Assembly (NCBI RefSeq): GCF_002160495.1
Contig: NZ_NFKR01000021.1
Coordinates: forward strand, 1 to 47,656
Reading direction: 5' to 3'
Origin: Erysipelatoclostridium sp. An173
Lineage (GTDB): Bacteria > Bacillota_I > Bacilli_A > Erysipelotrichales > Coprobacillaceae
Length of the DNA: 47,656 nt
Positions 27,667 through 42,617 of this stretch are shown piece by piece; positions within the stretch are counted from its first letter, which is position 1, and each line of letters begins with the position of its first letter. Below the pieces are notes generated by a model. The model was not told the origin of the DNA and ran no database searches. It saw only the letters and a program-made list of their open reading frames with translations. The position numbers and the translations under genes are program-made.

Positions 27667-27683
27667 ATTTTGAACATCAAACT
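27667..27683 (+). promoter_or_regulatory. FabT-type operator at the acpP promoter
   Basis: ATTTTGAACATCAAACT is a 17-bp near-palindrome (half-sites AxTTTGA and TCAAAxT). It fits the ANTTTGA-N3-TCAAANT form I recall for streptococcal FabT sites, and ends one base before the -35 of the acpP promoter. The MarR-type protein at 31685-32146 is the obvious ligand. Confidence 0.72.
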
Positions 27684-27684
27684 A

Positions 27685-27712
27685 TTTACAAATATTTATA
27701 TTTTGATATAAT
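27685..27712 (+). promoter_or_regulatory. Promoter of acpP and the fatty acid cluster
   Basis: TTTACA-N16-TATAAT, starting immediately after the FabT-type palindrome and 33 bases before the acpP start. Confidence 0.72.
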
Positions 27713-27745: not shown

Positions 27746-27973
27746 GTGGTATTTGAAAAAGTAAAAGAAATAATTGTAGATTCTTTAAGTTGTGATGAAG
27801 ATAAAGTTACTTTAGAAGCTAACTTAAAAGAAGATTTAGAAGCTGATTCTTTAGATGCTGTTGAATTAATTATGGCAGTAGAAGAAGAATTTGATGTTGA
27901 AATTCCTGATGAAAAAGCAGCTGAAATGAAAACTGTTCAGGATATCGTTGATTATATCGAAGCAAATTCTTAA
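27746..27973 (+). CDS. acpP: Acyl carrier protein
   Basis: Carries growing acyl chains on a phosphopantetheine arm. The 75-residue acidic helical protein has the modification site S35 in [10 protein letters not shown]. The start codon is GTG, with AGGAGGAAAT seven bases upstream. It heads the acc/fab cluster and is followed by its own terminator, so ACP transcripts probably exceed those of the downstream genes; read-through or a second promoter would supply accB onwards. Confidence 0.97.
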
Positions 27974-27977
27974 TAAT

Positions 27978-28012
27978 TTATTACCCAGAGTGACTGGGTA
28001 ATAATTTTTTTA
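27978..28012 (+). terminator. Terminator between acpP and accB
   Basis: TTATTACCCAG (27978-27988) pairs with CTGGGTAATAA (27994-28004), loop AGTGA, followed by eight T. Confidence 0.88.
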
Positions 28013-28019
28013 AAAAATT

Positions 28020-28036
28020 ACTTTGATATTCAAAAT
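28020..28036 (+). promoter_or_regulatory. Second FabT-type operator, before accB
   Basis: ACTTTGATATTCAAAAT fits ANTTTGA-N3-TCAAANT exactly. It lies between the acpP terminator and the accB ribosome binding site, where bound repressor could block elongation through the cluster or a promoter I cannot place. Confidence 0.7.
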
Positions 28037-28049
28037 AAAGGAGGACATT

Positions 28050-28511
28050 ATGAATATTGATTTAGTTAAACAATTGATTACTGAGTTTGAAAACTCTGAT
28101 GTTTTTAAAATGAAAGTGGAAATTGAAGATATAAAGTTAGAATTAGAAAAAGCACCTGTTGCCCCTGTAAACGTTGTTAGTGCTCCAGTTGCTTCTATGC
28201 CAGTAGCACCGGTTGCTCCTGCAGTTAGTCAAGTGCCAGAAGCACCAGTAAACAAGGAACCAGAAGTTAGTGGAACACCGGTTAAATCACCAATCGTTGG
28301 GGTTTTCTATGCTGCTAGTTCACCAACTGCTAAACCATATGTAGAAGTTGGAAGCAAAGTAAAAGCTGGTCAAGTATTATGTATTGTTGAAGCAATGAAA
28401 GTAATGAATGAAATTAAAGCTCCAATCGATGGAACAGTCACTGCGATTATGGCAAATAGTGAAGATTTAGTAGAATATGATCAAGTATTAATGATCATTG
28501 AAGGGAATTAA
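28050..28511 (+). CDS. accB: Biotin carboxyl carrier protein of acetyl-CoA carboxylase
   Basis: Carries carboxybiotin between biotin carboxylase and carboxyltransferase. From ATG 28050 (AAAGGAGG upstream) it has 153 residues; nine codons further upstream are in frame but cover the operator. Order: N-terminal helical region, Pro/Ala/Val-rich flexible linker (about 33-78), and the biotinyl domain with K117 in EAMKVMNE. It is the substrate of the BirA ligase encoded at 39826-40521. The next gene begins two bases after the stop. Confidence 0.95.
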   Translation: MNIDLVKQLITEFENSDVFKMKVEIEDIKLELEKAPVAPVNVVSAPVASMPVAPVAPAVSQVPEAPVNKEPEVSGTPVKSPIVGVFYAASSPTAKPYVEVGSKVKAGQVLCIVEAMKVMNEIKAPIDGTVTAIMANSEDLVEYDQVLMIIEGN

Positions 28512-28513
28512 CA

Positions 28514-29866
28514 ATGTTTAAACGAATTTTAATTGCTAATCGTGGCGAAATCGCAGTTCGTATTATTCGAACTTGTCAAGAATTAGGAATTGAGGCAGTA
28601 GCTGTATATTCAGATGTTGACAGTACTTCATTGCATGTTCAATTAGCTGATTATGCCGTTTGTATTGGTCCGGCAAAAGCAGCTGATAGTTATTTAAATA
28701 TGAAAAATATTTTAAGTGCTGCTACCGCTTTAGGGTGTGATGCCATTCATCCAGGTTTTGGATTTTTATCAGAAAATTCAACATTTGCTCGTTTGGTAGA
28801 AGAATGTGGAATGACATTTATTGGTCCTAGTGGTGATGTCATTGATATGATGGGAAATAAAAGTATGGCTCGTCAAAAAATGATTGAAGCTGGGGTACCA
28901 GTTGTACCAGGAAGTGATGGTAGTGTTAATACATTAGAAGAAGCTAAAGCTTGCGCTGATAAAATCGGTTATCCGGTATTGATCAAAGCTTCTGCTGGTG
29001 GTGGTGGACGCGGAATGCGCAAAGCTTTTAGTGAAGAAGAATTTGAAGATGCGTATTTAACTGCTAAGGCTGAAGCTAAAGCTTGTTTTGGTGATGATGA
29101 TATGTATTTAGAAAAATTAATTTTAAATCCTAAACATATTGAATTCCAAATTTTAGCGGATAATTATGGTAATGTAATCCATTTAGGTGAACGTGATTGT
29201 TCAATCCAAAGAAGAAATCAAAAGATGATTGAAGAAGCACCTAGCAAAGCTTTAACACCATTATTAAGACAAAAAATGGGTGAAGATGCCATTAAGGCTG
29301 CTAAAGGAGCAGGATATCGTAATGCTGGTACCGTTGAATATGTATTAGATCAAAATGGAAATTATTATTTCATTGAAATGAATACTCGTATTCAAGTAGA
29401 ACATCCAATTACAGAAATGGTTACTGGTGTTGATTTGGTAAGAGAACAAATCAGAATAGCAGCTAATCAAAAACTAACTTATAAACAAAGTGATATTCAT
29501 TTAAATGGTCATGCTATTGAATGTCGTATCAATGCTGAAAATCCTAAAGAAGGATTTAGACCATGTCCAGGAGTTGTCAATAGTGTTCATCTACCTGGTG
29601 GACCAGGAGTTAGAATTGATACAACATTATATCAAGGATATCGAGTTTCTTCACATTATGATTCAATGATTGCTAAAGTAATTGTACATGGATCAAATCG
29701 ATTAGAAGCGATTCGCAGAATGCGTCGTGTTTTAGCGGAACTGGTAATTGATGGAATTGATACTAATCAAGAATTACAATATTTAATTTTACATTCAAGT
29801 GAATATGTAAAGGGTAATTTCGATACTAGTTTCATTGAAAATAATTTAGATAAGCTGGTGAGATAG
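28514..29866 (+). CDS. accC: Biotin carboxylase subunit of acetyl-CoA carboxylase
   Basis: ATP-dependent carboxylation of biotin on AccB with bicarbonate. The 450-residue ATP-grasp enzyme has the N-terminal ANRGEIAVRIIR motif, glycine-rich ATP loop ASAGGGGRGMR (about 158-168), and the metal and bicarbonate segment FIEMNTRIQVEHPITE (about 285-300), all intact. Length is standard. Gaps of two to three bases on both sides show tight operon packing. Confidence 0.97.
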   Translation: MFKRILIANRGEIAVRIIRTCQELGIEAVAVYSDVDSTSLHVQLADYAVCIGPAKAADSYLNMKNILSAATALGCDAIHPGFGFLSENSTFARLVEECGMTFIGPSGDVIDMMGNKSMARQKMIEAGVPVVPGSDGSVNTLEEAKACADKIGYPVLIKASAGGGGRGMRKAFSEEEFEDAYLTAKAEAKACFGDDDMYLEKLILNPKHIEFQILADNYGNVIHLGERDCSIQRRNQKMIEEAPSKALTPLLRQKMGEDAIKAAKGAGYRNAGTVEYVLDQNGNYYFIEMNTRIQVEHPITEMVTGVDLVREQIRIAANQKLTYKQSDIHLNGHAIECRINAENPKEGFRPCPGVVNSVHLPGGPGVRIDTTLYQGYRVSSHYDSMIAKVIVHGSNRLEAIRRMRRVLAELVIDGIDTNQELQYLILHSSEYVKGNFDTSFIENNLDKLVR

Positions 29867-29869
29867 TAG

Positions 29870-30742
29870 ATGGAAGAATTATTTAAGGAACGGAAAGCAA
29901 AATTAAATTTATTTAAATCATTCCGTCATAAAATACAAAATAATAAAAGAATCGAAGTACCTGATGGTCTATATACAAAATGTGATGATTGTGGGGAAAC
30001 GGTTTTAACTGCTGATTTAAAAGAAAATTATTATGTATGTCCAAAATGTGGGGCACATTTAAAGATGCAGGCATATACGCGATTAAAACTTCTTTATGAT
30101 GGGGGTAAATATAGAGAGTTATATCGTAATATTCAATCAAATGACCCATTAATGTTTCCAGGGTATAAAGATAAATTAAATAAATTAAAAGAAACTACAA
30201 AATTAAATGAGGCTGTAGTTTGTGCAACTGGAAAAATTGATGGTAAAAAAGTCGTTGTTTGTGTAATGGATTCGCGTTTTTTAATGGGAAGTATGTCCGG
30301 AGCAGTTGGTGAAAAAATCACTAGAGCAATCGAACATGCTACAAAAAGAAAAGCACCATTGATTATTTTTACTACTTCTGGTGGTGCAAGAATGCAAGAG
30401 GGAATTATTTCATTGATGCAAATGGCTAAAACAAGTGCTGCTTTAGCTAAACATCATGAAGCTGGTTTGTTATATATATCATATATTACTCATCCAACAA
30501 CAGGTGGAGTTACGGCTTCATTTGCCATGTTAGGAGATATTATCATTGGTGAGCCTAAAGCATTAATTGGGTTTGCTGGACCACGTGTAATTGAATCAAC
30601 AATCAAACAAAAATTACCTGAGGGGTTCCAAAGAACAGAGTTTATGTTGGAACAGGGATTTATTGATTTAATTGTTGAACGTCCTAAAATGCGGGAAACA
30701 ATTATAAGGATATTAAAAATGCATAGTCGGGGGGTTCAATAA
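29870..30742 (+). CDS. accD: Acetyl-CoA carboxylase carboxyltransferase beta subunit
   Basis: Pairs with AccA to transfer the carboxyl group to acetyl-CoA, giving malonyl-CoA. The 290-residue protein has the expected N-terminal zinc ribbon (C38, C41, C57, C60) followed by the crotonase-like domain with SGGARMQEG near 168-176 and TTGGVTASFA. The stop overlaps the accA start (TAATG), consistent with balanced production of the two subunits. Confidence 0.97.
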   Translation: MEELFKERKAKLNLFKSFRHKIQNNKRIEVPDGLYTKCDDCGETVLTADLKENYYVCPKCGAHLKMQAYTRLKLLYDGGKYRELYRNIQSNDPLMFPGYKDKLNKLKETTKLNEAVVCATGKIDGKKVVVCVMDSRFLMGSMSGAVGEKITRAIEHATKRKAPLIIFTTSGGARMQEGIISLMQMAKTSAALAKHHEAGLLYISYITHPTTGGVTASFAMLGDIIIGEPKALIGFAGPRVIESTIKQKLPEGFQRTEFMLEQGFIDLIVERPKMRETIIRILKMHSRGVQ

Positions 30743-31692
30743 TGTCATTACAAGAAAAAGAAGTTAAAATTAAAGAAATTGAACTTGAAATATTAAAGCT
30801 AAGAGAGGATCAGGAAGTTGATCATACATTACAAATTCAAGATCTTGAAAATACTAAGAAAAAGTTAGAATCTGAAGCATATAAAAATATTACAGCTTAT
30901 GATCGTGTTTATTTAGCACGTAAACCTGATCGCCCTAATGTTTATGAATACATTGATAATTTATTTGATGATTTTATTGAACTACACGGTGATCGTTTAT
31001 ATAAAGATGATGGTTCTATTGTTGGAGGCTTAGCACTTTTTAATGACATTCCTTGTACTGTTATTGGTCATTTGAAGGGAAGATCTGTTGAAGAAAACAT
31101 TAAATGTAATTTTGGGATGTCATCACCTGAAGGATATCGTAAAGCATTAAGATTGATGAAACAGGCTGAGAAATTTAATCGTCCAATTATTACTTTTGTT
31201 GATACTCCAGGTGCTTATCCAGGCTTAGAAGCTGAAAAAAATGGTATTGGTGAAGCAATTGCTAGAAATTTGATGGAAATGTCACAAATTAAAGTACCGA
31301 TTATTGTTATTGTAATTGGTGAAGGTAATAGTGGTGGTGCTTTAGGTATTAGTATTGGTGATCGTATCGTAATGTTAGAAAACAGTGTTTATTCAGTACT
31401 TTCACCAGAAGGATTTTCTTCTATTTTATGGAAGGATAAAGAAGGAAAACGAGTACAGGAAGCTACTGAACTAATGAAATTGACAGCTTTAGATCTATAT
31501 CAAATGAAAATTATAGATAAAATTATTCAGGAACCACAAGGTGGTATTACTAAAAAGCCTGAGTATGTTTATAAACGATTAAGAGTTTATATTCGAGATA
31601 CTTTATCAGAATTAATGAAGTTATCTAAAAATTCATTAATTAATAAGCGTTATCAAAAATATAGAGAAATGGGTAGAGCAACGAATGACTAA
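30742..31692 (+). CDS. accA: Acetyl-CoA carboxylase carboxyltransferase alpha subunit
   Basis: The 316-residue partner of AccD. A helical N-terminus (1-70) precedes the crotonase-like domain with DTPGAYPGLEAEKNG (about 155-169) and the oxyanion-hole segment GEGNSGGALG (about 194-203). Length is typical of bacterial AccA. It overlaps accD by one base and fabT by eight bases. Confidence 0.97.
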   Translation: MSLQEKEVKIKEIELEILKLREDQEVDHTLQIQDLENTKKKLESEAYKNITAYDRVYLARKPDRPNVYEYIDNLFDDFIELHGDRLYKDDGSIVGGLALFNDIPCTVIGHLKGRSVEENIKCNFGMSSPEGYRKALRLMKQAEKFNRPIITFVDTPGAYPGLEAEKNGIGEAIARNLMEMSQIKVPIIVIVIGEGNSGGALGISIGDRIVMLENSVYSVLSPEGFSSILWKDKEGKRVQEATELMKLTALDLYQMKIIDKIIQEPQGGITKKPEYVYKRLRVYIRDTLSELMKLSKNSLINKRYQKYREMGRATND

Positions 31693-32146
31693 TCGAGATA
31701 TTTTAAATCGCGAATTAATTAATCATCTTTTTGTACGCTTGTTCAATCAAATTCTTGACATTGAAAGTAAGTATATGGTTGCTCATGGTGTTGAGGATTT
31801 AAGTGTTTCAGAATTGCATATTATTGACGCGATTAGTTCTTTATCAAGTCCTACAATGTCAACTATAGCTTCAAAGGCAACACTTACTAATGGTACTATT
31901 ACTACAGCGATAAAAAAATTAGAGGCTAAAGGCTATGTTAAACGTCATAAAGATCAAAATGATCGTCGTATAATTAGAGTTGAGCTGACAGCAAAAGGTA
32001 CTCGTGTTTGTAAGGTACATAGTGAATTTCATGAAGAAATGGTTAGTCGTGTTTGCGAAGATAGTGACGCTTTAGATAATGAATTATTAATAAAATCGTT
32101 ACAACAGTTGGTTTATTTCTTTGAGGATATCAAAGAAAAGTATTAG
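31685..32146 (+). CDS. fabT: MarR-family fatty acid synthesis repressor, FabT-like
   Basis: A 153-residue MarR-type regulator with a winged helix (about 55-100; recognition region LTNGTITTAIKKLEAKGYV, wing KDQNDRRIIRVELT). Length and pattern closely match streptococcal FabT, including the SELHIIDAI helix and the C-terminal dimerisation helix ending FFEDIKEKY. FabT represses fatty acid genes when bound to acyl-ACP. Here the gene sits between accA and fabH, not at the operon front as in streptococci. Palindromes at 27667-27683 and 28020-28036 are likely operators, so it should be autoregulated. Assignment as FabT rests on similarity, context and sites. Confidence 0.85.
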   Translation: MTNRDILNRELINHLFVRLFNQILDIESKYMVAHGVEDLSVSELHIIDAISSLSSPTMSTIASKATLTNGTITTAIKKLEAKGYVKRHKDQNDRRIIRVELTAKGTRVCKVHSEFHEEMVSRVCEDSDALDNELLIKSLQQLVYFFEDIKEKY

Positions 32147-32154
32147 GAGATTAT

Positions 32155-33096
32155 ATGGATGGAATAAAGGTATTATCTACCGGTTATTATGCACCAGAAA
32201 ATATTCTTGATAACTTCGACTTAGAAAAGATGGTTGAAACATCGGATGATTGGATCGTATCAAGAACCGGGATTAAAAAAAGACATATTAGTAAAGGTGA
32301 AGATTGCACAGAGATGGCTTATCAAGCAGCTTTGCAGGCAATTGAAAAAATAGATAAAAATAAAATTGGGATAATCATCTGTGCGACAATGACACCTGAT
32401 TATTTTACACCAAGTACAGCTTGTTTATTGCAGGAAAGATTAGGGCTAAATGATCATGAAGTAATGTGTTTTGATTTAAGCGCAGCATGTAGTGGTTTTG
32501 TTTATGCTTTAACTGTTGCTCAGGCTTTACTAAAAAATACTAAGGATAAATATGCGTTAGTAGTTGGAAGTGAGGAATTATCAAAAATTATTGATTTTAC
32601 CGATCGTAATACTTGTGTGTTATTTGGTGATGGAGCTGGAGCTGTTGTTGTCAGTCAAGGTGATGGTTTATTTGCAAGTTATTGTAATTCGGCAGGAAAT
32701 ATAGGAGCATTAAAAGCGCCAGCGATAAATAATAAAGAGGATAATCATTATTTAACGATGGCCGGACAGGAAGTCTTTAAGTTTGCAGTTAAAGTAATTC
32801 CTGAAAGTATTAATGCGATTTTAGAAAAAACAGGATTAGAATTTGATGATATCGCTTATGTTGTTTGTCATCAGGCTAATTATCGGATCATAAAAAATGT
32901 TTATAAAAAAATGAAAGCTGAACCTGAAAAGTTCTATATGAATTTGCAGGAATATGGAAATACTTCAGCGGCTAGTATTCCTTTAGCTTTAGGAGAAATG
33001 AATGCCAAAGGAATGTTAAAATCTGGTGATAAAATTATTTGTGTAGGTTTTGGTGGCGGTCTAACATGGGGCGCAACATTAATAGAATGGAGTTAG
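32155..33096 (+). CDS. fabH: Beta-ketoacyl-ACP synthase III
   Basis: Condenses a primer acyl-CoA with malonyl-ACP to start each chain. The 313-residue thiolase-fold enzyme has the triad C112 (SAACSGF), H239 (CHQAN) and N269 (YGNTSAAS). The C-terminal GFGGGLTWGA is standard. Whether it prefers acetyl-CoA or branched primers cannot be read from the sequence. An 8-base gap follows fabT, with AGGAG before the ATG. Confidence 0.96.
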   Translation: MDGIKVLSTGYYAPENILDNFDLEKMVETSDDWIVSRTGIKKRHISKGEDCTEMAYQAALQAIEKIDKNKIGIIICATMTPDYFTPSTACLLQERLGLNDHEVMCFDLSAACSGFVYALTVAQALLKNTKDKYALVVGSEELSKIIDFTDRNTCVLFGDGAGAVVVSQGDGLFASYCNSAGNIGALKAPAINNKEDNHYLTMAGQEVFKFAVKVIPESINAILEKTGLEFDDIAYVVCHQANYRIIKNVYKKMKAEPEKFYMNLQEYGNTSAASIPLALGEMNAKGMLKSGDKIICVGFGGGLTWGATLIEWS

Positions 33097-33099
33097 AAT

Positions 33100-34032
33100 A
33101 TGAAGCTAAATGAATTATTAGGAATTAAATACCCGTTAATTCAAGGGGGAATGGCAAATATTGCTACAGGTGAATTTGCTGCAAGTGTATCTAATGCAGG
33201 AGCATTAGGGTTAATTGGTGCTGGTGGCATGGACACAGCAACATTGAAAAAGAATATTGAAATTTGCCGTAGTTTAACTGATAAACCTTTTGGGGTTAAT
33301 ATTATGTTAATGAATCCTTATGCAGATGAAATGGCACAATTGGTAATTGATGAAAAAGTACCGGTAGTAACTACAGGAGCTGGTAATCCAGGTAAATATG
33401 TAGCAGCTTGGAAAGAAGCTGGTATCAAAGTTTTACCAGTAGTACCTAGTGTAGCTTTAGCTAAACGTTTAGAAAAATATAACGTTGATGCAGTTATTGT
33501 TGAAGGAACTGAAGCTGGTGGGCATATTGGAGATTTAACAACAATGGCTTTAGTACCACAAGTAGTTGAAGCTGTTAATATTCCTGTTATTGCAGCTGGA
33601 GGAATTGCTTCTGGTAAACAAGTATTAGCTGCTTATGCTTTAGGAGCATGTGGTGTTCAAGTAGGAACTTGTCTGTTAGCTAGTGAAGAATGTCCAATTC
33701 ATGAAAATTATAAACAAGCTATTGTTAAAGCTAAAGATACTAGTACAACAGTTACAGGTCGAATTGGTGGAACACCAGTTAGAATTATTAAAAATAAAAT
33801 GGCTAAAGAATACATTAAACGTGAAAAAGAAGGTGCTGGTATGGAAGAACTTGAAAAATATACTTTAGGTTCTTTAAGAAAAGCAGTACTTGAAGGTGAT
33901 GTTGATAATGGTTCTTTAATGGCCGGACAAGTGGCTGGAATGGTAAATGAAATCCAACCAGTAGCTACAATTATTAAAAACTTATTTGATGATTGTAAAA
34001 ATGAATTAAATAGATTAGAAAGTGAGATATAA
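33100..34032 (+). CDS. fabK: Enoyl-ACP reductase, FMN-dependent
   Basis: Final reduction of each elongation cycle. The 310-residue TIM-barrel flavoprotein of the nitronate monooxygenase superfamily has PLIQGGMANIATGEFAA at the N-terminus, H142 in EAGGHIGDL, and the FMN phosphate loop AAGGIASGKQ (about 166-175). Position in the cluster and absence of fabI support the FabK role. It is the first of two tandem flavoproteins and lacks the cysteine cluster found in its neighbour. Confidence 0.92.
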   Translation: MKLNELLGIKYPLIQGGMANIATGEFAASVSNAGALGLIGAGGMDTATLKKNIEICRSLTDKPFGVNIMLMNPYADEMAQLVIDEKVPVVTTGAGNPGKYVAAWKEAGIKVLPVVPSVALAKRLEKYNVDAVIVEGTEAGGHIGDLTTMALVPQVVEAVNIPVIAAGGIASGKQVLAAYALGACGVQVGTCLLASEECPIHENYKQAIVKAKDTSTTVTGRIGGTPVRIIKNKMAKEYIKREKEGAGMEELEKYTLGSLRKAVLEGDVDNGSLMAGQVAGMVNEIQPVATIIKNLFDDCKNELNRLESEI

Positions 34033-34034
34033 AA

Positions 34035-35099
34035 ATGAAAAGTGTTTGCATAGGTGATATGAAGTTAGAAGTACCAATAATCCAAGGGGGCATGGGAGTC
34101 GGTATTTCACTAGGAAACTTAGCAGGACACGTAGCAAAGAACGGTGGAATGGGGGTCATTTCCACAGCACATCCAGGTTATCGAGCAGAAGATTTTGAAA
34201 AAAATCCAACTGAAGTTAATAAAAGAGAGCTGGCAAAAGAAATCCAAAAAGCTAAGGAAATCGCTAAAGGTAAGGGAATGGTAGCTATTAATGCCATGGT
34301 GGCGATTACTGATTATGCTCAAATGGTTGAAGTAGCAATTAAAAATAAAATAGATGCTATTATTTCTGGTGCTGGATTGCCAATGAATTTACCTGGATTT
34401 GTTAAAGGGACTAAAGTTAAGATTGCACCAATCGTATCAAGTGGTAAAGCAGCGCGATTAATTTGTAAAACATGGGATCGTCGCTATCATGTTGCTCCAG
34501 ATTTTGTTGTTATTGAAGGAAGCGAAGCTGGGGGACATTTAGGTTTTCATAAAGAAGATGTTTTAAATAAAACAACAGCTAAATTAGCCGATATTTTTAA
34601 AGAAGTAAAAGAAACATTACAACCTTTTGTTGAAAAATATCAAAAAGAAATACCTATTTTCGTAGCTGGTGGTGTTTATGACGCTGATGATATTAAACAA
34701 TTTATGGATTTAGGAGCTGATGGAGTGCAAATGGCAACACGTTTTATTTGTACTGAAGAATGTGATGCTGATATTAAATATAAAGAAGCATTTATCAACG
34801 CTAAAAAAGAAGATATTGAGATCGTTAAATCACCAGTAGGTATGCCAGGAAGAGCAATTATGACAAAACTTACCGAACGTTTAAAAAATGATGAGCGCAT
34901 TCCGGTTAAAAGATGTTATAATTGTTTAGTACCATGTGATGTTAAAACAACACCGTATTGTATTAGTTCGGCACTGATTAACGCAGCTAAAGGAAATCTT
35001 GATGAAGGTTTGGTTTTTAGTGGCAGCAATGGATATCGTAATGATAAAATTGTTACAGTGAAAGAATTAATGGATGAATTAAAGGAAGGGTTTAAATAA
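34035..35099 (+). CDS. FabK-related flavoprotein with four-cysteine motif (FabX-like)
   Basis: A 354-residue nitronate monooxygenase-superfamily flavoprotein, paralogous to the preceding FabK: PIIQGGMGVGISLGNLA at the start, H168 in EAGGHLGF, and VAGGVYDADD for the FMN site. It differs in a C-terminal extension with C294, C297, C301 and C309 (C-X2-C-X3-C-X7-C), a plausible [4Fe-4S] site. Helicobacter FabX, of similar length, is an FMN and iron-sulfur member of this superfamily that makes the cis double bond in fatty acids. FabA and FabM are absent and there is one FabZ, so this gene is a good candidate for the unsaturated-chain branch. Alternatives: a second enoyl reductase, or a nitronate monooxygenase. 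It overlaps fabD by one base. Confidence 0.72.
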   Translation: MKSVCIGDMKLEVPIIQGGMGVGISLGNLAGHVAKNGGMGVISTAHPGYRAEDFEKNPTEVNKRELAKEIQKAKEIAKGKGMVAINAMVAITDYAQMVEVAIKNKIDAIISGAGLPMNLPGFVKGTKVKIAPIVSSGKAARLICKTWDRRYHVAPDFVVIEGSEAGGHLGFHKEDVLNKTTAKLADIFKEVKETLQPFVEKYQKEIPIFVAGGVYDADDIKQFMDLGADGVQMATRFICTEECDADIKYKEAFINAKKEDIEIVKSPVGMPGRAIMTKLTERLKNDERIPVKRCYNCLVPCDVKTTPYCISSALINAAKGNLDEGLVFSGSNGYRNDKIVTVKELMDELKEGFK

Positions 35100-36031
35100 T
35101 GGGTAAGATTGGATTTGTATATGCTGGTCAAGGAAGTCAAGTTGTTGGTATGGGAAAATCTTTCTATGACAACTATCAAGTAGCTAAAGATGTTTTTGAT
35201 CAGATTGATTTAGATATTGATGTAAAAAAATTATGTTTTGAAGGACCAATTGAAGAACTTTCTAAAACAAGTAATACACAACCATGTATGGTTGCTGTTG
35301 CTGTAGTAGCAACTAAATTATTAAAGGAAAATGGTATTAACCCTGATTATGTTGCTGGTCTTAGTTTAGGTGAATACTCAGCTTTAAATGCAGCTGGAGT
35401 ATTAGATGATCAAACAGCAATTAATTTAGTTCGTTTCCGTGGTCAAGCTATGGAAGAAGCAGCAGCTGGTATTGAAAGTAAAATGATTGCTATTATTGGT
35501 TTAGACCGTGATTTATTAAATGAAGCTGTTAATGAAGCTAGTGAATTAGGAGTTGTATCTATTGCTAATTATAATTGTCCTGGACAATTAGTAATTGGTG
35601 GTGAAGCTAAAGCAGTAACTAAAGCTAGTGAATTAGCATTAGAAAAAGGTGCTCGAAGAGCAATTCCTTTAAATACAAGTGGTCCTTTCCATACTAAATT
35701 ACTTGAAGCAGCAAGTGTTAAGTTAAAAGAAAGATTTGAAACAGTAACTTTCAATGAAATGAAAGTACCAGTAATTTTTAATAGTACAGCTAAAGAATTA
35801 GCTGAAGATACAACAGTTGCTAAGATGTTAGAAAAACAAGTAATGTCATCAGTATATTTTGAAGATAGTATTCGTTATATGATAGCTAACGGTGTTGATA
35901 CAATTATCGAAATTGGACCAGGTAAAGTATTAAGTGGTTTTGTTCGTAAAATTGATCGTAAAATTAAAACTTATCAGGTTGAAGACCAGGCGTCTTTAGA
36001 AAAAACATTAGCAGGATTAAAAGGAGAGTAA
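35099..36031 (+). CDS. fabD: Malonyl-CoA:ACP transacylase
   Basis: Transfers malonyl from CoA to ACP. The 310-residue enzyme has GQGSQ at 11-15, nucleophile S89 in GLSLGEYSA and catalytic H198 in GPFHTKLL. Length is standard. The start overlaps the upstream stop by one base, and fabG starts one base after its stop. Confidence 0.97.
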   Translation: MGKIGFVYAGQGSQVVGMGKSFYDNYQVAKDVFDQIDLDIDVKKLCFEGPIEELSKTSNTQPCMVAVAVVATKLLKENGINPDYVAGLSLGEYSALNAAGVLDDQTAINLVRFRGQAMEEAAAGIESKMIAIIGLDRDLLNEAVNEASELGVVSIANYNCPGQLVIGGEAKAVTKASELALEKGARRAIPLNTSGPFHTKLLEAASVKLKERFETVTFNEMKVPVIFNSTAKELAEDTTVAKMLEKQVMSSVYFEDSIRYMIANGVDTIIEIGPGKVLSGFVRKIDRKIKTYQVEDQASLEKTLAGLKGE

Positions 36032-36032
36032 C

Positions 36033-36785
36033 ATGAAATTAAAAGATAAGGTAGTTTTAGTAACTGGTGGAGCTCAAGGAATTGGTAAAGAAATCTGTTT
36101 TGCATGTGCTCGTGAAGGTGCTAAAATTGTAGTAAACTATATTGATATTGGTGATAATAAAGAAATTGCCCAAAAAACTAAAGATGAACTTGAAGCTACT
36201 GGGGCAACAGTAATGTTAGCTCAAGCAAATGTTGCTTCTTTTGAAGAAACTGGGGCAATGGTTAAAGAAGTAGTTAAAGAATTTGGTAGAATTGATGTTT
36301 TAGTAAATAATGCCGGAATCACTAAAGATAATTTATTAATGAGAATGAAAGAAAGTGATTTTGATGCAGTTGTTGATGTAAACTTAAAAGGAACATGGAA
36401 CTGCATGAAACATGTTACTAAAATTATGATGAAACAACGTTATGGTAGAATCATTTCAATGTCATCTGTAGTTGGTGTAATGGGAAATGCTGGACAAGTT
36501 AACTATGCAGCAACAAAATCAGGTATTATTGGAATGACAATGTCATTAGCTCGTGAAGTAGGTAGTCGTGGAATTACAGTAAATGCTGTTGCTCCGGGAT
36601 TTATCAAAACTGCAATGACAGATGTATTACCAGATGATATTAAAGAAAATATGATTAAACAAATTCCATTAGGAACTTTAGGTGAAGTTAGCGATATTGC
36701 CAATACAGTTGTTTTTTTAGCTAGTGATGATGCTAAATATATTACAGGGCAAACTATTCACGTTGATGGCGGAATGGCGATGTAA
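36033..36785 (+). CDS. fabG: 3-oxoacyl-ACP reductase
   Basis: NADPH-dependent reduction of beta-ketoacyl-ACP. The 250-residue short-chain dehydrogenase has the cofactor motif TGGAQGIG (11-18), NNAGIT (about 91-96), the active-site serine in SMSSVVG, and Y158/K162 in NYAATKSG. The C-terminal GQTIHVDGGMAM is typical of FabG. Confidence 0.97.
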   Translation: MKLKDKVVLVTGGAQGIGKEICFACAREGAKIVVNYIDIGDNKEIAQKTKDELEATGATVMLAQANVASFEETGAMVKEVVKEFGRIDVLVNNAGITKDNLLMRMKESDFDAVVDVNLKGTWNCMKHVTKIMMKQRYGRIISMSSVVGVMGNAGQVNYAATKSGIIGMTMSLAREVGSRGITVNAVAPGFIKTAMTDVLPDDIKENMIKQIPLGTLGEVSDIANTVVFLASDDAKYITGQTIHVDGGMAM

Positions 36786-36793
36786 GGAGAAAG

Positions 36794-38035
36794 ATGATGA
36801 AAAGAAGAGTTGTTGTTACAGGTATTGGAGCAATTAATGCAATTGGTCATAATGTAGAAGAAACTTGGAAAAGTATTAAAGACGGTGTTTGTGGAATTGG
36901 AGAAATTACAAATTATGATAATTCCCTAACAAAAGTAAAAATTGCTGGAGAAGTAAAAGATTTTAATGTAGCTGATTATCTTGATAAAAAAGCTGCTCGT
37001 AAAATGGATCGTTTTACCCAATTTGGGGTTATCGCTGCTAGAGAAGCTTTTAAAGATTCTGGTTTAGAAATTGATAAAATTAATGCTGATCGTTTTGGAG
37101 TAGCTGTTTCTAGTGGAATCGGTGGAATTGGAACAATTGAAAAAGATCATAGTAAAGCTTTACAAAAAGGATATGATCGTGTTTCCCCTTTCTTTGTACC
37201 AATGGCTATTACTAATTTAGCTGCTGGTAATATTGCCATTGATTTAGGTGCTAAAGGAATGTGTACTTGTCCAGTAACAGCATGTGCTGGTGGTACTAAT
37301 GCAATTGGTGATGCATTTAGAAATATTCGCGATGGATACCAGGATATTATGGTTGCTGGTGGTGCTGAAGCAAGTATTACACCACTTGGAGTTGGTGGAT
37401 TTACATCAATGAAAGCACTTTGTGATAATAATGATCCAGCAAGAGCATCTATCCCATTTGATGCTGATCGTAGCGGTTTTGTAATGGGTGAAGGTGCTGG
37501 AATATTAGTTCTTGAAGAATTAGAACATGCTAAAGCTCGTGGTGCTCATATCTATTGTGAAATGGTTGGTTATGGTGCTAGTTGTGATGCTTATCATATT
37601 ACTGCTCCATTATCTGATGGTTCTGGTGGTGCTAAAGCAATGGTTAACGCTTTAGAAGATGCTGGATTAAAACCAGAAGATGTAACTTATATTAATGCTC
37701 ATGGAACAAGTACACCATTAAATGATAAAGGTGAAACTTTAGCTATTAAAGCTGCTTTAGGTGAAGCTGCTAAAAACGTAGCTATTTCATCAACAAAAGG
37801 AAATACAGGACATTGTTTAGGTGCTGCTGGTGGAATCGAAGGTGTAATCTGTGTTAAAGCAGTTGAAGAAGGTTATATTCCAGCAACAATCAATTATCAA
37901 AATCCTGATCCTGAATGTGATTTAGACATCGTTCCAAATGTTGGTAGAGAACAAGAAGTTAATGTTGCTATGTCAAATTCTTTAGGTTTTGGTGGACATA
38001 ATGCAACAATTGTATTTAAGAAATATGGAGAATAG
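36794..38035 (+). CDS. fabF: Beta-ketoacyl-ACP synthase II
   Basis: Elongating condensing enzyme. The protein has 413 residues from ATG 36794 (AGGAG just upstream); the adjacent second ATG at 36797 is an equally good start. Counted from the first ATG the Cys-His-His triad is C164 (VTACAGGTNA), H303 (NAHGTSTP) and H340 (NTGHCLGAAG). It is the only elongating condensing enzyme in the cluster, so it probably extends both saturated and unsaturated intermediates. Confidence 0.97.
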   Translation: MMKRRVVVTGIGAINAIGHNVEETWKSIKDGVCGIGEITNYDNSLTKVKIAGEVKDFNVADYLDKKAARKMDRFTQFGVIAAREAFKDSGLEIDKINADRFGVAVSSGIGGIGTIEKDHSKALQKGYDRVSPFFVPMAITNLAAGNIAIDLGAKGMCTCPVTACAGGTNAIGDAFRNIRDGYQDIMVAGGAEASITPLGVGGFTSMKALCDNNDPARASIPFDADRSGFVMGEGAGILVLEELEHAKARGAHIYCEMVGYGASCDAYHITAPLSDGSGGAKAMVNALEDAGLKPEDVTYINAHGTSTPLNDKGETLAIKAALGEAAKNVAISSTKGNTGHCLGAAGGIEGVICVKAVEEGYIPATINYQNPDPECDLDIVPNVGREQEVNVAMSNSLGFGGHNATIVFKKYGE

Positions 38036-38039
38036 AGAG

Positions 38040-38465
38040 ATGGAATTAAATAGTAATCAAATTCAAGAAATAAATCCTCATCGTTATCCTTTTGCTTTAG
38101 TTGATCGAATCACTGATTATAAACCAGGTGAATATGCAAAAGGTATTAAATGTGTAAGTGTTAATGAAATGCATTTTTGTGGTCATTTCCCACAACATCA
38201 TGTAATGCCAGGAGTTTTAATTGTAGAAGCATTAGCACAAGTAGGGTGTATTGCTATTCTTTCTAAAGAAGAAAACAAAGGAAAAATTGCTTTCTTTGGT
38301 GGAATTAATAAATGTAAATTTAAAGGACAAGTTACACCTGGTGATGTTTTAGAAATGGAATGTCATTTAACAAAGCAAAAGGGACCAATTGGTATTGGTG
38401 AAGCTGTTGCTAAGGTTGATGGAAAAGTTGTTTGTAAGGCAGAATTAACATTTGCAGTACAATAA
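38040..38465 (+). CDS. fabZ: 3-hydroxyacyl-ACP dehydratase
   Basis: Dehydrates beta-hydroxyacyl-ACP. From ATG 38040 it has 141 residues, with the hot-dog fold catalytic H49 in CGHFPQH and E63 in VEALAQVG, and the INPHRYPF N-terminus. Longer in-frame starts (37989, 38025) lie inside fabF and are less likely; GGAG at 38027-38030 is correctly spaced for 38040. There is only one FabZ, so a FabN-type isomerase pair as in enterococci is not encoded here. It is the last gene of the cluster. Confidence 0.96.
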   Translation: MELNSNQIQEINPHRYPFALVDRITDYKPGEYAKGIKCVSVNEMHFCGHFPQHHVMPGVLIVEALAQVGCIAILSKEENKGKIAFFGGINKCKFKGQVTPGDVLEMECHLTKQKGPIGIGEAVAKVDGKVVCKAELTFAVQ

Positions 38466-39799: not shown

Positions 39800-39825
39800 T
39801 AAAAGTATCTAGTGGGGTGGTAATG

Positions 39826-40521
39826 ATGAGTTATATCGAATTAGATACAGTGGATTCAACTAATGAGTACGTAAAAAAAAATATTGACCGGTTAAATAAT
39901 TTAAGTGTTGTACGTTGTAATTATCAAACCAGTGGTAAAGGGAGAAATGGTCATGTTTGGCAAAGCAAGCCGGGCGAAGATCTATTAATGAGTATTTTGG
40001 TTAAGGATTTTAAAAACCCTCAGGATTTACATAAAATGACACAAATAGCTGCTTGTAGCGTAGTAGGTTTATTAGAACGTTATGGAATCAAAGCAAAAAT
40101 AAAATGGCCAAATGATGTTTATGTTGATGATTTGAAAATTTGCGGGATTTTAGTTGAGGCTGTTTTTGAATCAAATTTAAAGGGAATTATAGTAGGAATT
40201 GGCTTGAATGTTAATTCTATTAGTGGTAGTTTTGCATCGATGAAAATGAAAACAGGTCAAGAGTATCATGTGAAGTCTTTAATGATTGCAATGTTAACGT
40301 ATTTTAATATTTATTATAATCTTTATCAACAAGGATGTTATAATAAAATTCTTGATTATGTCAATGATATTGCTTATTTAAAGGATAAAAAAGTTAACTT
40401 TGAAGATTATGGTTTAGTGACATTTACATCATTAAATGAAGATGGTACTGTTGATTTTATCGATAGTAATAATATAAAACATAATAAGCTGATTAATGAG
40501 ATTTCATTACACAGTAAATAA
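39826..40521 (+). CDS. birA: Biotin-[acetyl-CoA-carboxylase] ligase
   Basis: Activates biotin with ATP and attaches it to the AccB lysine. It has 231 residues from ATG 39826 (GTGGGGTGG upstream; ATG 39823 is adjacent and GTG 39817 in frame). Signatures: DSTNEYVK near the start, the biotin loop GKGRNGHVW (equivalent of GRGRxGRxW), KIKWPNDVYVDDLKICGIL and the short C-terminal SH3-like domain. There is no N-terminal helix-turn-helix, so it is a monofunctional ligase that does not itself repress biotin genes. The location 1.3 kb beyond the acc/fab cluster fits its role. Confidence 0.93.
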   Translation: MSYIELDTVDSTNEYVKKNIDRLNNLSVVRCNYQTSGKGRNGHVWQSKPGEDLLMSILVKDFKNPQDLHKMTQIAACSVVGLLERYGIKAKIKWPNDVYVDDLKICGILVEAVFESNLKGIIVGIGLNVNSISGSFASMKMKTGQEYHVKSLMIAMLTYFNIYYNLYQQGCYNKILDYVNDIAYLKDKKVNFEDYGLVTFTSLNEDGTVDFIDSNNIKHNKLINEISLHSK

Positions 40522-40567
40522 AAGAAGCTAAACGAATAAAAAGGTTTATTCGTTATAGCTTCTTTTT
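40520..40567. terminator. Bidirectional terminator, birA and metal-GTPase operon
   Basis: The arm 40520-40540 (AAAAGAAGCTAAACGAATAAA, split by one bulge at pairing) pairs with 40545-40566 around an AAGG loop. Both flanks carry A/T runs. Confidence 0.9.
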
Positions 40568-41508
40568 TAATCAAATGTAACATAAGGATTATCTAGTGGT
40601 GGAACGACTTCAAGATGATCTACTGGTAATACTGGCACATCCATTTGATATTCAGTATCATATTCAACTTGTATTTTTCCTTCAACGCTAACCCATTCTT
40701 CAGGAATCAGTTTTTTAGCTAAAGGACTAATACAAATTAAACCTATTAAAGATGTATCTTGCTCACAACATACCATTGCTTGTCGTCCTAAGACAAATCC
40801 ATTATCTAATACTCGGTCTAAACCAATAAATTTACCTTTGATTTTAATTGTCTTACCTTCATATTTTCGAGGATGATCCATAACATCCATACAAAAAATA
40901 CCAAAATCATGATCAAGAATTTCAATTCGATCTCGATTAATATCAAAAGGCATTTCTTCTTCAGTGTTTAAAGTATCGATAGTACCATCAGGTAACTCAT
41001 AGATGATTTGAGCATTAGAATTAATAGCTTTAATATTATTCCGTAATGATGATTTTTTGACATTACGATTATAACGATTAAAGATTACTAAATCGCTAAA
41101 TACAACTTGCCCATATACTAAAGAACGCATATTACTTACATACATTGAAAAAGTAGTTGTATCAATAGTTGTTAAGACTTGAACAACATTCCAGTTTTCA
41201 GGAACAATTTCCTTTACAAATGCGTTCAAATCCATCATCCCGTTAGCTTCAATTAAAATTTGCGTAGGATGATATTTATTTTCTAATGCCATTAAATCAT
41301 TAGATGTGTAGTTTTCATGATCAAGAATTTCTAAATTAGTATTTGCTCTTTTTAAGATACTTTCTTGATAAGGAACTTCGCCTTCTTCAAAACTAATTAA
41401 CAAAGTATCCTCACCATTATAAAAATCAGGATTACTTAAAGTATCATTAATAAATGTAGTTTTACCACTATCTAAAAATCCTGCAAAAATATATACTCGA
41501 GTACTCAT
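40567..41508 (-). CDS. COG0523-like GTPase fused to a YcgQ/TIGR03943-like C-terminal domain
   Basis: A 313-residue protein. Residues about 1-185 form a G3E-type GTPase domain with P-loop GFLDSGKT (10-17) instead of GFLGAGKT. The CxCC metal motif of COG0523 proteins is missing: FEEGEVP stands near that place. Residues about 198-313 look like the C-terminal domain of YcgQ/TIGR03943 proteins (GIFCMDV, YEGKTIKIKG, FVLGRQAMVCCEQD, and the closing PPLDNPY). In Bacillus, YcgQ and its permease partner YcgR are linked to metal homeostasis. A GTPase fused to this domain suggests a metal chaperone or sensor working with the upstream COG0523 protein. It overlaps that gene by one base (TAATG). Metal unproven, zinc most likely. 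Confidence 0.72.
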   Translation of the reverse strand: MSTRVYIFAGFLDSGKTTFINDTLSNPDFYNGEDTLLISFEEGEVPYQESILKRANTNLEILDHENYTSNDLMALENKYHPTQILIEANGMMDLNAFVKEIVPENWNVVQVLTTIDTTTFSMYVSNMRSLVYGQVVFSDLVIFNRYNRNVKKSSLRNNIKAINSNAQIIYELPDGTIDTLNTEEEMPFDINRDRIEILDHDFGIFCMDVMDHPRKYEGKTIKIKGKFIGLDRVLDNGFVLGRQAMVCCEQDTSLIGLICISPLAKKLIPEEWVSVEGKIQVEYDTEYQMDVPVLPVDHLEVVPPLDNPYVTFD

Positions 41509-42617
41509 TAAGCCACTCCCTCAAATAAAGCATCTAATTTAGCTTCATCTAATTTTTCACCAATGACACAAATACGTCCAGTAAAATCAGCATTACCAGT
41601 TCTAATTTCGTATTCACCAGGTACTAAATCAAAATACCACCATTTATCTTCATTGCTATCAACATATCCTTTTGCTCTTAAGATATTGCCAAAGCTATTA
41701 TCGCTACTTAACTCTTTTAAAATAGCTTCTAACTGTTCTTTAGTATATTTTTTAGGTGTTTGTTTACCCCAGCTTGTAAATACTTCATCAGCATGATGGT
41801 GATGGTGGTGATGTCCACAGCCACAATCATGATCGTGATGATGTTCATGGTGTTCGCAATCACAGTCATGATCGTGATGATGTTCATGATGTTCGCAGTC
41901 ACAGTCATGATCGTGATGATGTTCATGGTGTCCGCAGCCACAGTCATGGTCGTGGTGATGTTCATGATGATGACCACATTCTGGACAAACATCTAATTCA
42001 GCTAGTAATTCATCTCGTAAATTATCACTATCACTAAATGCATTAACAAGAGTTTCTTTTGTTAGCTGATCCCATGGTGTAGTAATAATATTTGCTTTAT
42101 CATTATGATCTTTAATGATTTTAATGCATTCATCTAATTGATATTCAGTAACATCTTGAGTTCTGCTTAAGATAATTAGTGAAGCATATTCAATTTGATT
42201 GTTGAAAAATTCACCAAAGTTTTTAGTATATAAACGACATTTTTTAGCGTCAATAACAGCAATATAATTATCAAGTTCTAATTCATCGCTGTTAACATCG
42301 TCAACTGCTTTGATCACATCAGATAGTTTACCAACTCCTGATGGTTCAATAATGATGCGGTCAGGATGATAAGTTTCTAATACTTCTTTTAATGAAGCTT
42401 CAAAATCTCCAACTAAGCTGCAACAAATGCAACCGGAATTGATTTCAGTTACTTCAATACCAGCATTGTTCATAAAAGTTCCATCAATACCAATTTCACC
42501 AAATTCATTTTCAATTAAAACTATTTGTTGACCTTGATATACATCATTAATTAATTTTTTTATAAAGGTTGTTTTACCAGCCCCTAAAAAACCAGAAATA
42601 ATATCTACTTTTGTCAT
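41508..42617 (-). CDS. COG0523 metal-chaperone GTPase with histidine-rich insert
   Basis: A 369-residue G3E GTPase of the CobW/YciC/ZigA group, which deliver metal (often zinc) to client proteins. P-loop GFLGAGKT (9-16), ENEFGEIGID (36-45) and the nucleotide-gated metal site C63-x-C65-C66 in SGCICCS are intact. Between the GTPase and C-terminal CobW_C domain (about 285-369) is an insert of about 65 residues made of repeated His-, Asp- and Cys-rich units, preceded by a CPECG pair. It probably stores or captures metal. It is the first gene of a two-gene operon with its own promoter. No Zur box was recognised. Confidence 0.9.
   Translation of the reverse strand: MTKVDIISGFLGAGKTTFIKKLINDVYQGQQIVLIENEFGEIGIDGTFMNNAGIEVTEINSGCICCSLVGDFEASLKEVLETYHPDRIIIEPSGVGKLSDVIKAVDDVNSDELELDNYIAVIDAKKCRLYTKNFGEFFNNQIEYASLIILSRTQDVTEYQLDECIKIIKDHNDKANIITTPWDQLTKETLVNAFSDSDNLRDELLAELDVCPECGHHHEHHHDHDCGCGHHEHHHDHDCDCEHHEHHHDHDCDCEHHEHHHDHDCGCGHHHHHHHADEVFTSWGKQTPKKYTKEQLEAILKELSSDNSFGNILRAKGYVDSNEDKWWYFDLVPGEYEIRTGNADFTGRICVIGEKLDEAKLDALFEGVA
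41821..41976 (-). repeat. Four tandem 39-bp repeats encoding the His-rich insert
   Basis: Four consecutive 39-base units (41821-41859, 41860-41898, 41899-41937, 41938-41976) each encode 13 residues of type HHEHHHDHDCDCE. The two middle units differ from the first and from each other at only a few positions; the last is the most diverged. Such in-frame repeats can change copy number between strains. Confidence 0.92.

What the first reader, a model, noticed from the sequence alone, without database searches (positions are those of the whole stretch)
34035..35099. Second FabK-like flavoprotein with a four-cysteine motif may be the unsaturated fatty acid enzyme
Seen: two tandem nitronate monooxygenase-fold proteins in one fatty acid cluster; only the second has C294, C297, C301 and C309 near its C-terminus. 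Known: Helicobacter FabX is an FMN and iron-sulfur protein of this fold that introduces the cis double bond. The cluster has no FabA or FabM and a single FabZ. Inference: this gene supplies the anaerobic unsaturated branch in a Gram-positive lineage where that step is often unassigned.
Basis: partly seen in the sequence, partly recalled or inferred. Interest (0 to 1): 0.72.

Follow-up and report, generated by a model that had tools for sequence, protein, structure and literature searches.

The report
FabX-type unsaturated fatty acid enzyme
This gene, sitting inside the fatty-acid-making operon of an anaerobic-type Gram-positive bacterium, almost certainly encodes a relative of Helicobacter FabX, an iron-sulfur flavoprotein that puts the kink-forming double bond into membrane fatty acids, and the same gene is found in most Clostridiaceae genomes sampled, a family in which this step was reported to be unassigned in 2009.

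Summary
ORF 34035-35099 (354 aa) lies between fabK and fabD in a fatty acid operon and has Cys294, 297, 301 and 309. Its best solved relative is H. pylori FabX: 254 bits over the full length versus 78 for FabK; AlphaFold model Z 50.0, 1.9 A, 344 residues aligned, versus Z 37 for FabK. The four cysteines align with FabX cluster ligands C300/C304/C308/C320; catalytic His and FMN residues are conserved. The genome (100% complete) has one FabZ/FabA-family gene, no crotonase (FabM) and no membrane desaturase. Relatives with four cysteines sit beside fab/acc genes in several arrangements across Clostridia. In the same family, 34 of 36 FabZ-carrying genomes and 0 of 7 FabZ-less genomes have at least part of it (broken in two); in Clostridiaceae, 174 of 190 and 0 of 5. 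Differences from H. pylori FabX are a tighter cysteine spacing (CX2CX3CX7C, not CX3CX3CX11C) and presumed life without oxygen, H. pylori FabX's electron acceptor. [quoted passage not shown] It is a new member of a known family; no activity was tested.

The parts
34035..35099 (+). FabX-family FMN/[4Fe-4S] enoyl-ACP isomerase/dehydrogenase candidate (354 aa)
   Evidence: phmmer against PDB: FabX 254 bits, FabK 78; AF2 pLDDT 94.8; VIA-align Z 50.0 to 7e1q
34914..34961 (+). Four-cysteine block C294-X2-C297-X3-C301-X7-C309, predicted [4Fe-4S] ligands
   Evidence: align to FabX C300/C304/C308/C320 (ligands from PMC8626469)
34536..34538 (+). Catalytic His168 codon (H182 of H. pylori FabX)
   Evidence: invariant in all 119 FabX-type sequences
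34443..34487 (+). Helix 137-151, equivalent of FabX ACP-binding helix alpha7 (K138, K145, R150 = K152, K159, R164); its C-terminal half is absent from FabK
33100..34032 (+). fabK, FMN enoyl-ACP reductase (saturated branch)
32155..33096 (+). fabH
35099..36031 (+). fabD
   Evidence: sequence/synteny
36033..36785 (+). fabG
   Evidence: sequence/synteny
36794..38035 (+). fabF (no separate FabB/FabO in the cluster)
   Evidence: TIGR03150 627 bits
38040..38465 (+). fabZ, the only FabA/FabZ-family gene in the genome (start set to ATG at 38040)
31685..32146 (+). MarR-type regulator, FabT-like (125.7 bits, cut-off 200)
27746..31692 (+). acpP, accB, accC, accD, accA at the head of the operon
27669..27681 (.). 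TTTGAACATCAAA palindrome just upstream of the promoter-like site 27685-27712; candidate FabT-like box
   Evidence: inference
28022..28034 (.). TTTGATATTCAAA palindrome between acpP and accB; candidate FabT-like box
   Evidence: inference

Best explanation
The gene encodes a FabX-family flavoprotein (FMN plus one [4Fe-4S] cluster held by C294, C297, C301, C309) that supplies the unsaturated branch of type II fatty acid synthesis: it forms cis-3-decenoyl-ACP, which the single FabF of the operon elongates to C16:1/C18:1. Most likely (about 0.55 within this reading) it works mainly as a redox-neutral isomerase, taking trans-2-decenoyl-ACP made by FabZ, in competition with the neighbouring FabK. 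The acyl chain would enter an L-shaped tunnel between FMN and His168, His168 would shift the proton, and the cluster would close the tunnel end. Shown here: homology, fold, cofactor residues, operon, co-occurrence, absence of known alternatives. Inferred: cofactor content, substrate, reaction, oxygen independence.
For: Full-length match to FabX, 254 bits versus 78 for the best FabK. Model pLDDT 94.8; Foldseek top 5 all FabX, TM 0.85-0.89; VIA-align Z 50.0, 1.9 A, 344 aligned, versus FabK Z 37. All four cluster cysteines, catalytic His, FMN residues GGMG, N99, E175, G180, Q240 and T243, and ACP-helix basic residues K152/K159/R164 have counterparts. Tree: FabK and FabX-type rows are separated at 100 support. 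Operon position conserved (fabH-fabK-fabX-fabD in same-family and same-order loci), and different fab/acc-adjacent arrangements in Clostridia. Co-occurrence with FabZ: 34/36 versus 0/7 in the family, 174/190 versus 0/5 in Clostridiaceae (Fisher p 1.1e-6 and 9e-6, not corrected for relatedness). No alternative enzyme found in the genome. C. acetobutylicum FabZ lacks isomerase activity (PMC2700279). For F. nucleatum FabX, overexpression raises resistance to a FabK inhibitor (PMC11091888), compatible with acting at the same branch point.
Against: No activity, cofactor or lipid data for this protein or, as far as I could find, any short-spacing relative. H. pylori FabX needs O2 as acceptor for dehydrogenation (PMC8626469); the acceptor here, if any, is unknown. 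ACP-contact residues T130 and R160 are not conserved (M117, T146), and the PPant-pocket Y277 is M270. Sixteen of 190 FabZ-carrying Clostridiaceae genomes have no match at E <= 1e-60, and G021 and G022 carry a whole fab operon without fabX, so it is dispensable in some lineages. The organism and its fatty acid profile were not identified.
Confidence: 0.82

Rival explanations
1. Backtracking dehydrogenase/isomerase as in H. pylori: it oxidises decanoyl-ACP to trans-2- and then cis-3-decenoyl-ACP and passes electrons through FMN and the cluster to a non-oxygen acceptor (for example ferredoxin, flavodoxin or a quinone-like carrier).
For: Both redox cofactor sites are conserved, and a cluster 13.4 A from FMN has no obvious need in a pure isomerase (PMC8626469). 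The N. gonorrhoeae relative supports UFA synthesis anaerobically with an unknown acceptor (cited in PMC11300592).
Against: The operon's FabK would undo the oxidation, and trans-2-decenoyl-ACP is already available from FabZ. No redox partner gene lies in the operon.
Confidence: 0.3
2. A second enoyl-ACP reductase: a FabK-like enzyme that reduces trans-2-enoyl-ACP, with the cluster relaying electrons.
For: Same fold family; FabX overexpression partly offsets FabK inhibition in F. nucleatum (PMC11091888).
Against: A dedicated FabK lies next to it. In FabX the Fe-S subdomain replaces FabK's NAD(P)H-binding motif (PMC8626469), and this protein aligns with that subdomain. It scores 118 bits against the FabK cut-off of 453.
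Confidence: 0.08
3. A nitronate monooxygenase-type detoxification enzyme that is in the operon by chance.
For: Pfam gives PF03060 NMO, 184 bits, the broad superfamily.
Against: Nitronate monooxygenases match far less well than FabX (Z about 30 against 50; 45 bits or less against 254). Association with fab/acc genes recurs in several arrangements, and the gene is absent from the FabZ-less genomes sampled.
Confidence: 0.02

Closest known systems
Helicobacter pylori FabX (PDB 7e1q; Zhou et al. 2021, PMC8626469)
   Same: Full-length homology (about 42% identity), FMN barrel, catalytic His, four cluster cysteines, C-terminal Fe-S subdomain, basic residues on the ACP-binding helix
   Different: Cys spacing CX2CX3CX7C instead of CX3CX3CX11C; A165, M117, T146 and M270 in place of S179, T130, R160 and Y277; encoded inside a fab operon with fabK (H. 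pylori has no fabK); presumed anaerobic use
Neisseria gonorrhoeae UfaA (NGO1024; Isabella and Clark 2011, known here only through citing papers)
   Same: Reported as a FabX homologue needed for anaerobic UFA synthesis; its title already points to obligate anaerobes lacking FabA
   Different: Sequence and paper not available to me; cysteine spacing not compared
Fusobacterium nucleatum FabX homologue C4N14_08920 (PMC11091888)
   Same: Anaerobe with FabK plus a FabX carrying the cluster cysteines
   Different: 50.8% identical to H. pylori FabX, so closer to it than this protein is
FabK, enoyl-ACP reductase II (e.g. C. difficile 7l00)
   Same: FMN barrel with the catalytic His
   Different: No Fe-S subdomain; has an NAD(P)H-binding region; separate clade (100 support)
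FabM (S. pneumoniae) and FabN (E. faecalis)
   Same: Proposed same metabolic step, trans-2 to cis-3-decenoyl-ACP
   Different: Unrelated folds; neither family has a candidate in this genome beyond the single fabZ

Membership tests
FabX | Full-length homology and same fold as H. pylori FabX, above FabK and NMO | tested here: met
FabX | Four cysteines in the C-terminal subdomain at the cluster-ligand positions | tested here: met
   C294/297/301/309 align with C300/304/308/320, with different spacing
FabX | Catalytic His (H182) and FMN-binding residues | tested here: met
   H168, G18-G21, N86, E161, G166, Q232, T235
FabX | ACP-binding residues (T130, K152, K159, R160, R164) | tested here: inconclusive
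   K152, K159, R164 conserved as K/K/R; T130 is M and R160 is T
FabX | Bound FMN and [4Fe-4S] cluster | not testable with these tools
   needs purified protein
FabX | Decanoyl-ACP dehydrogenase / trans-2 to cis-3 isomerase activity; O2 as acceptor | not testable with these tools
   no biochemistry here; O2 use unlikely in a presumed anaerobe
FabK | Curated equivalog score (TIGR03151, 453 bits) | tested here: not met
   118 bits
FabK | NAD(P)H-binding C-terminal region rather than an Fe-S subdomain | tested here: not met
   the protein aligns with the FabX Fe-S subdomain, model residues 1-354 on 7e1q 5-363
FabA/FabN/FabZ dehydratase-isomerases | PF07977 hot-dog domain | tested here: not met
   only the operon fabZ matches PF07977 in the genome
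FabM | Crotonase fold, PF00378 | tested here: not met
   no hit in the genome

The most novel reading that the evidence does not exclude
The short-spacing FabX-like proteins (CX2CX3CX7C) found across Clostridia and this lineage are oxygen-independent flavin/iron-sulfur enoyl-ACP isomerases, and they are the long-sought enzyme of the anaerobic unsaturated fatty acid pathway first proposed from Clostridium labelling work, catalysing the isomerisation without net redox change.
Probability: 0.45. Interest if true: 0.8.

Novelty: new member of a known kind. Interest (0 to 1): 0.62.

Why it matters
In 2009 no dedicated enzyme for unsaturated fatty acid synthesis was known in Clostridia, and FabZ had been ruled out in C. 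acetobutylicum (PMC2700279). A FabX relative in 174 of 195 sampled Clostridiaceae genomes, often beside fab genes, makes that old question directly testable. It would also show how a fold known from an oxygen-using enzyme works without oxygen, and point to a membrane-fluidity enzyme in many gut anaerobes (Blautia, Roseburia and Faecalicatena records among the hits), in contrast to the FabX paper's remark that homologues rarely associate with healthy gut flora.

Tried and rejected
Another UFA enzyme in the genome: PF07977 (one gene, the operon fabZ), PF00378 and PF00487 (none) were searched; PF03405 acyl-ACP desaturase and FabQ were not searched separately. FabK paralogue: rejected by score, tree and subdomain. 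Direct measurement of Cys-FMN distances: the model's coordinates are not exposed, so only the superposition on FabX is available. Isabella and Clark 2011 is not held. Whether C. acetobutylicum itself has the gene could not be checked by name. Literature search found no paper assigning FabX to Clostridia, but the library is open-access only. Genomes lacking FabX: G021 and G022 have a fabK-fabD junction with no fabX; G024, same genus, has an internal 21-residue loss that removes the IISGAGLP segment, and G031 has a frame break.

Full report
OBSERVATION. ORF 34035-35099 (+) encodes 354 aa with Cys294, 297, 301 and 309. It starts 2 nt after fabK and overlaps fabD by one base, in a run acpP-accB-accC-accD-accA-marR-fabH-fabK-X-fabD-fabG-fabF-fabZ (27746-38465). 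The first of the two tandem proteins, 33100-34032, is a normal FabK. Base composition of the gene (35% G+C) is close to that of its neighbours (32-36%).

WHAT IT IS. Against the PDB the best hits are the H. pylori FabX chains, 254 bits over residues 2-352; the best FabK scores 78 bits. With a 43-sequence alignment AlphaFold2 gives pLDDT 94.8. Foldseek ranks five FabX entries first (TM normalised by query 0.85-0.89), and VIA-align gives Z 50.0, rmsd 1.9 A, 344 aligned residues, 42% identity to 7e1q, with FabK at Z 37 and nitronate monooxygenases near 30. The alignment spans model residues 1-354, thus also the C-terminal Fe-S subdomain.

RESIDUES. The FabX paper names C300, C304, C308 and C320 as cluster ligands, H182 as catalytic, and N99, E175, Q240 and T243 among FMN contacts (PMC8626469). 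In an alignment of 119 FabX-type sequences and 15 FabKs the query has C294, C297, C301, C309, H168, N86, E161, Q232 and T235 at these places. A four-cysteine motif is present in all 119 FabX-type sequences and the cysteine block is missing in FabK. K152, K159 and R164 of the ACP-binding helix are K138, K145 and R150; T130 and R160 are not conserved. The spacing differs: CX2CX3CX7C in 106 of 119, CX3CX3CX7C in 7, CX3CX3CX11C in H. pylori FabX and two close relatives (L043, L044). In a tree, FabK and FabX-type rows separate with support 100, and the three Hp-type sequences form one clade (99); the split of Hp-type from short-spacing type has only moderate support (84).

CONTEXT. The fabH-fabK-fabX-fabD order is kept in the same-family loci and same-order loci read. 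In 80 loci from other genomes, nearly all Clostridia, fabX is found in several arrangements beside fab or acc genes: fabK-fabX-fabD; accA-fabX; fabX-fabT-fabH; divergent from fabH; fabZ-fabX. Many other loci show no fab gene within the flank held. Repeated association in different orders is stronger evidence for a fatty acid role than a single conserved operon.

ALTERNATIVES AND CO-OCCURRENCE. The genome is rated 100% complete. It has one FabA/FabZ-family gene (the operon fabZ), no crotonase match and no membrane desaturase. In 43 genomes of the family, 36 have fabZ, always one copy; 34 of those 36 and none of the 7 without fabZ have a FabX-type match. Two of the 34 carry damaged genes (G031 frame break, G024 internal loss), and the two exceptions, G021 and G022, have fab operons without fabX. 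In Clostridiaceae 174 of 195 genomes match; 174 of 190 with fabZ and 0 of 5 without. All 18 named clostridial genomes checked have one FabA/FabZ-family gene. Fisher tests give p of 1.1e-6 and 9e-6, but relatedness is not corrected for.

HOW IT LIKELY WORKS. H. pylori FabX dehydrogenates decanoyl-ACP, isomerises trans-2 to cis-3, and passes electrons to O2; the isomerisation itself does not need oxygen (PMC8626469). In an organism with FabK and FabZ, trans-2-decenoyl-ACP is already present, so the cheapest role is isomerisation at the branch point, in competition with FabK. The F. nucleatum finding that FabX overexpression partly offsets FabK inhibition (PMC11091888) is compatible with both proteins acting at the same node. 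Electron transfer to another acceptor remains possible, because both redox centres are conserved. I put about 0.55 on the isomerase mode, given that the protein is the UFA enzyme.

PRIOR KNOWLEDGE. The FabX paper already reported homologues above 50% identity in 7 phyla. The N. gonorrhoeae relative was proposed in 2011 to matter for anaerobes lacking FabA (title cited in PMC11300592; paper not held). In 2009 the clostridial enzyme was explicitly called unknown (PMC2700279). I found no paper that assigns it. So this is a new member of a known kind, with broad reach, not a new kind.

LIMITS. No biochemical or lipid data; cluster geometry not measured; organism unnamed; anaerobic life inferred from the company of relatives; open-access literature only.

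Noticed in passing
27669-27681 and 28022-28034: Two of only three exact TTTGANNNTCAAA palindromes in the window (0.49 expected) lie upstream of acpP and of accB; possible sites of the FabT-like regulator encoded in the operon.
   Followed up: partly
27978-28004: Strong terminator-like hairpin (11 pairs, then T-run) between acpP and accB, which could make acpP more abundant than the rest of the operon.
   Followed up: no
41508-42617 (-): CobW-family GTPase with a long His/Cys-rich repeat (HHEHHHDHDCxC units), next to a second CobW protein (40567-41508) fused to a DUF1980 C-terminal domain; likely metal handling.
   Followed up: partly
L045 and L133 (G021, G022), L136 (G024): Within one genus of the family, fabX is absent from an otherwise complete fab operon in two genomes and internally deleted in a third, while G023 keeps it: apparent ongoing loss, a natural knockout series.
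   Followed up: yes
L135 (G031): fabX between fabK and fabD has a frame break near residue 257; pseudogene or assembly error not resolved.
   Followed up: partly
L043, L044: Genomes of the same class carry an Hp-type FabX (56-58% identical to H. pylori FabX, CX3CX3CX11C), with no fabH, fabK or fabD in the 1.5 kb flanks held, so both types occur in one bacterial class.
   Followed up: partly
39817-40521: Biotin protein ligase family gene shortly downstream of the operon, fitting with the biotin-dependent AccB.
   Followed up: no
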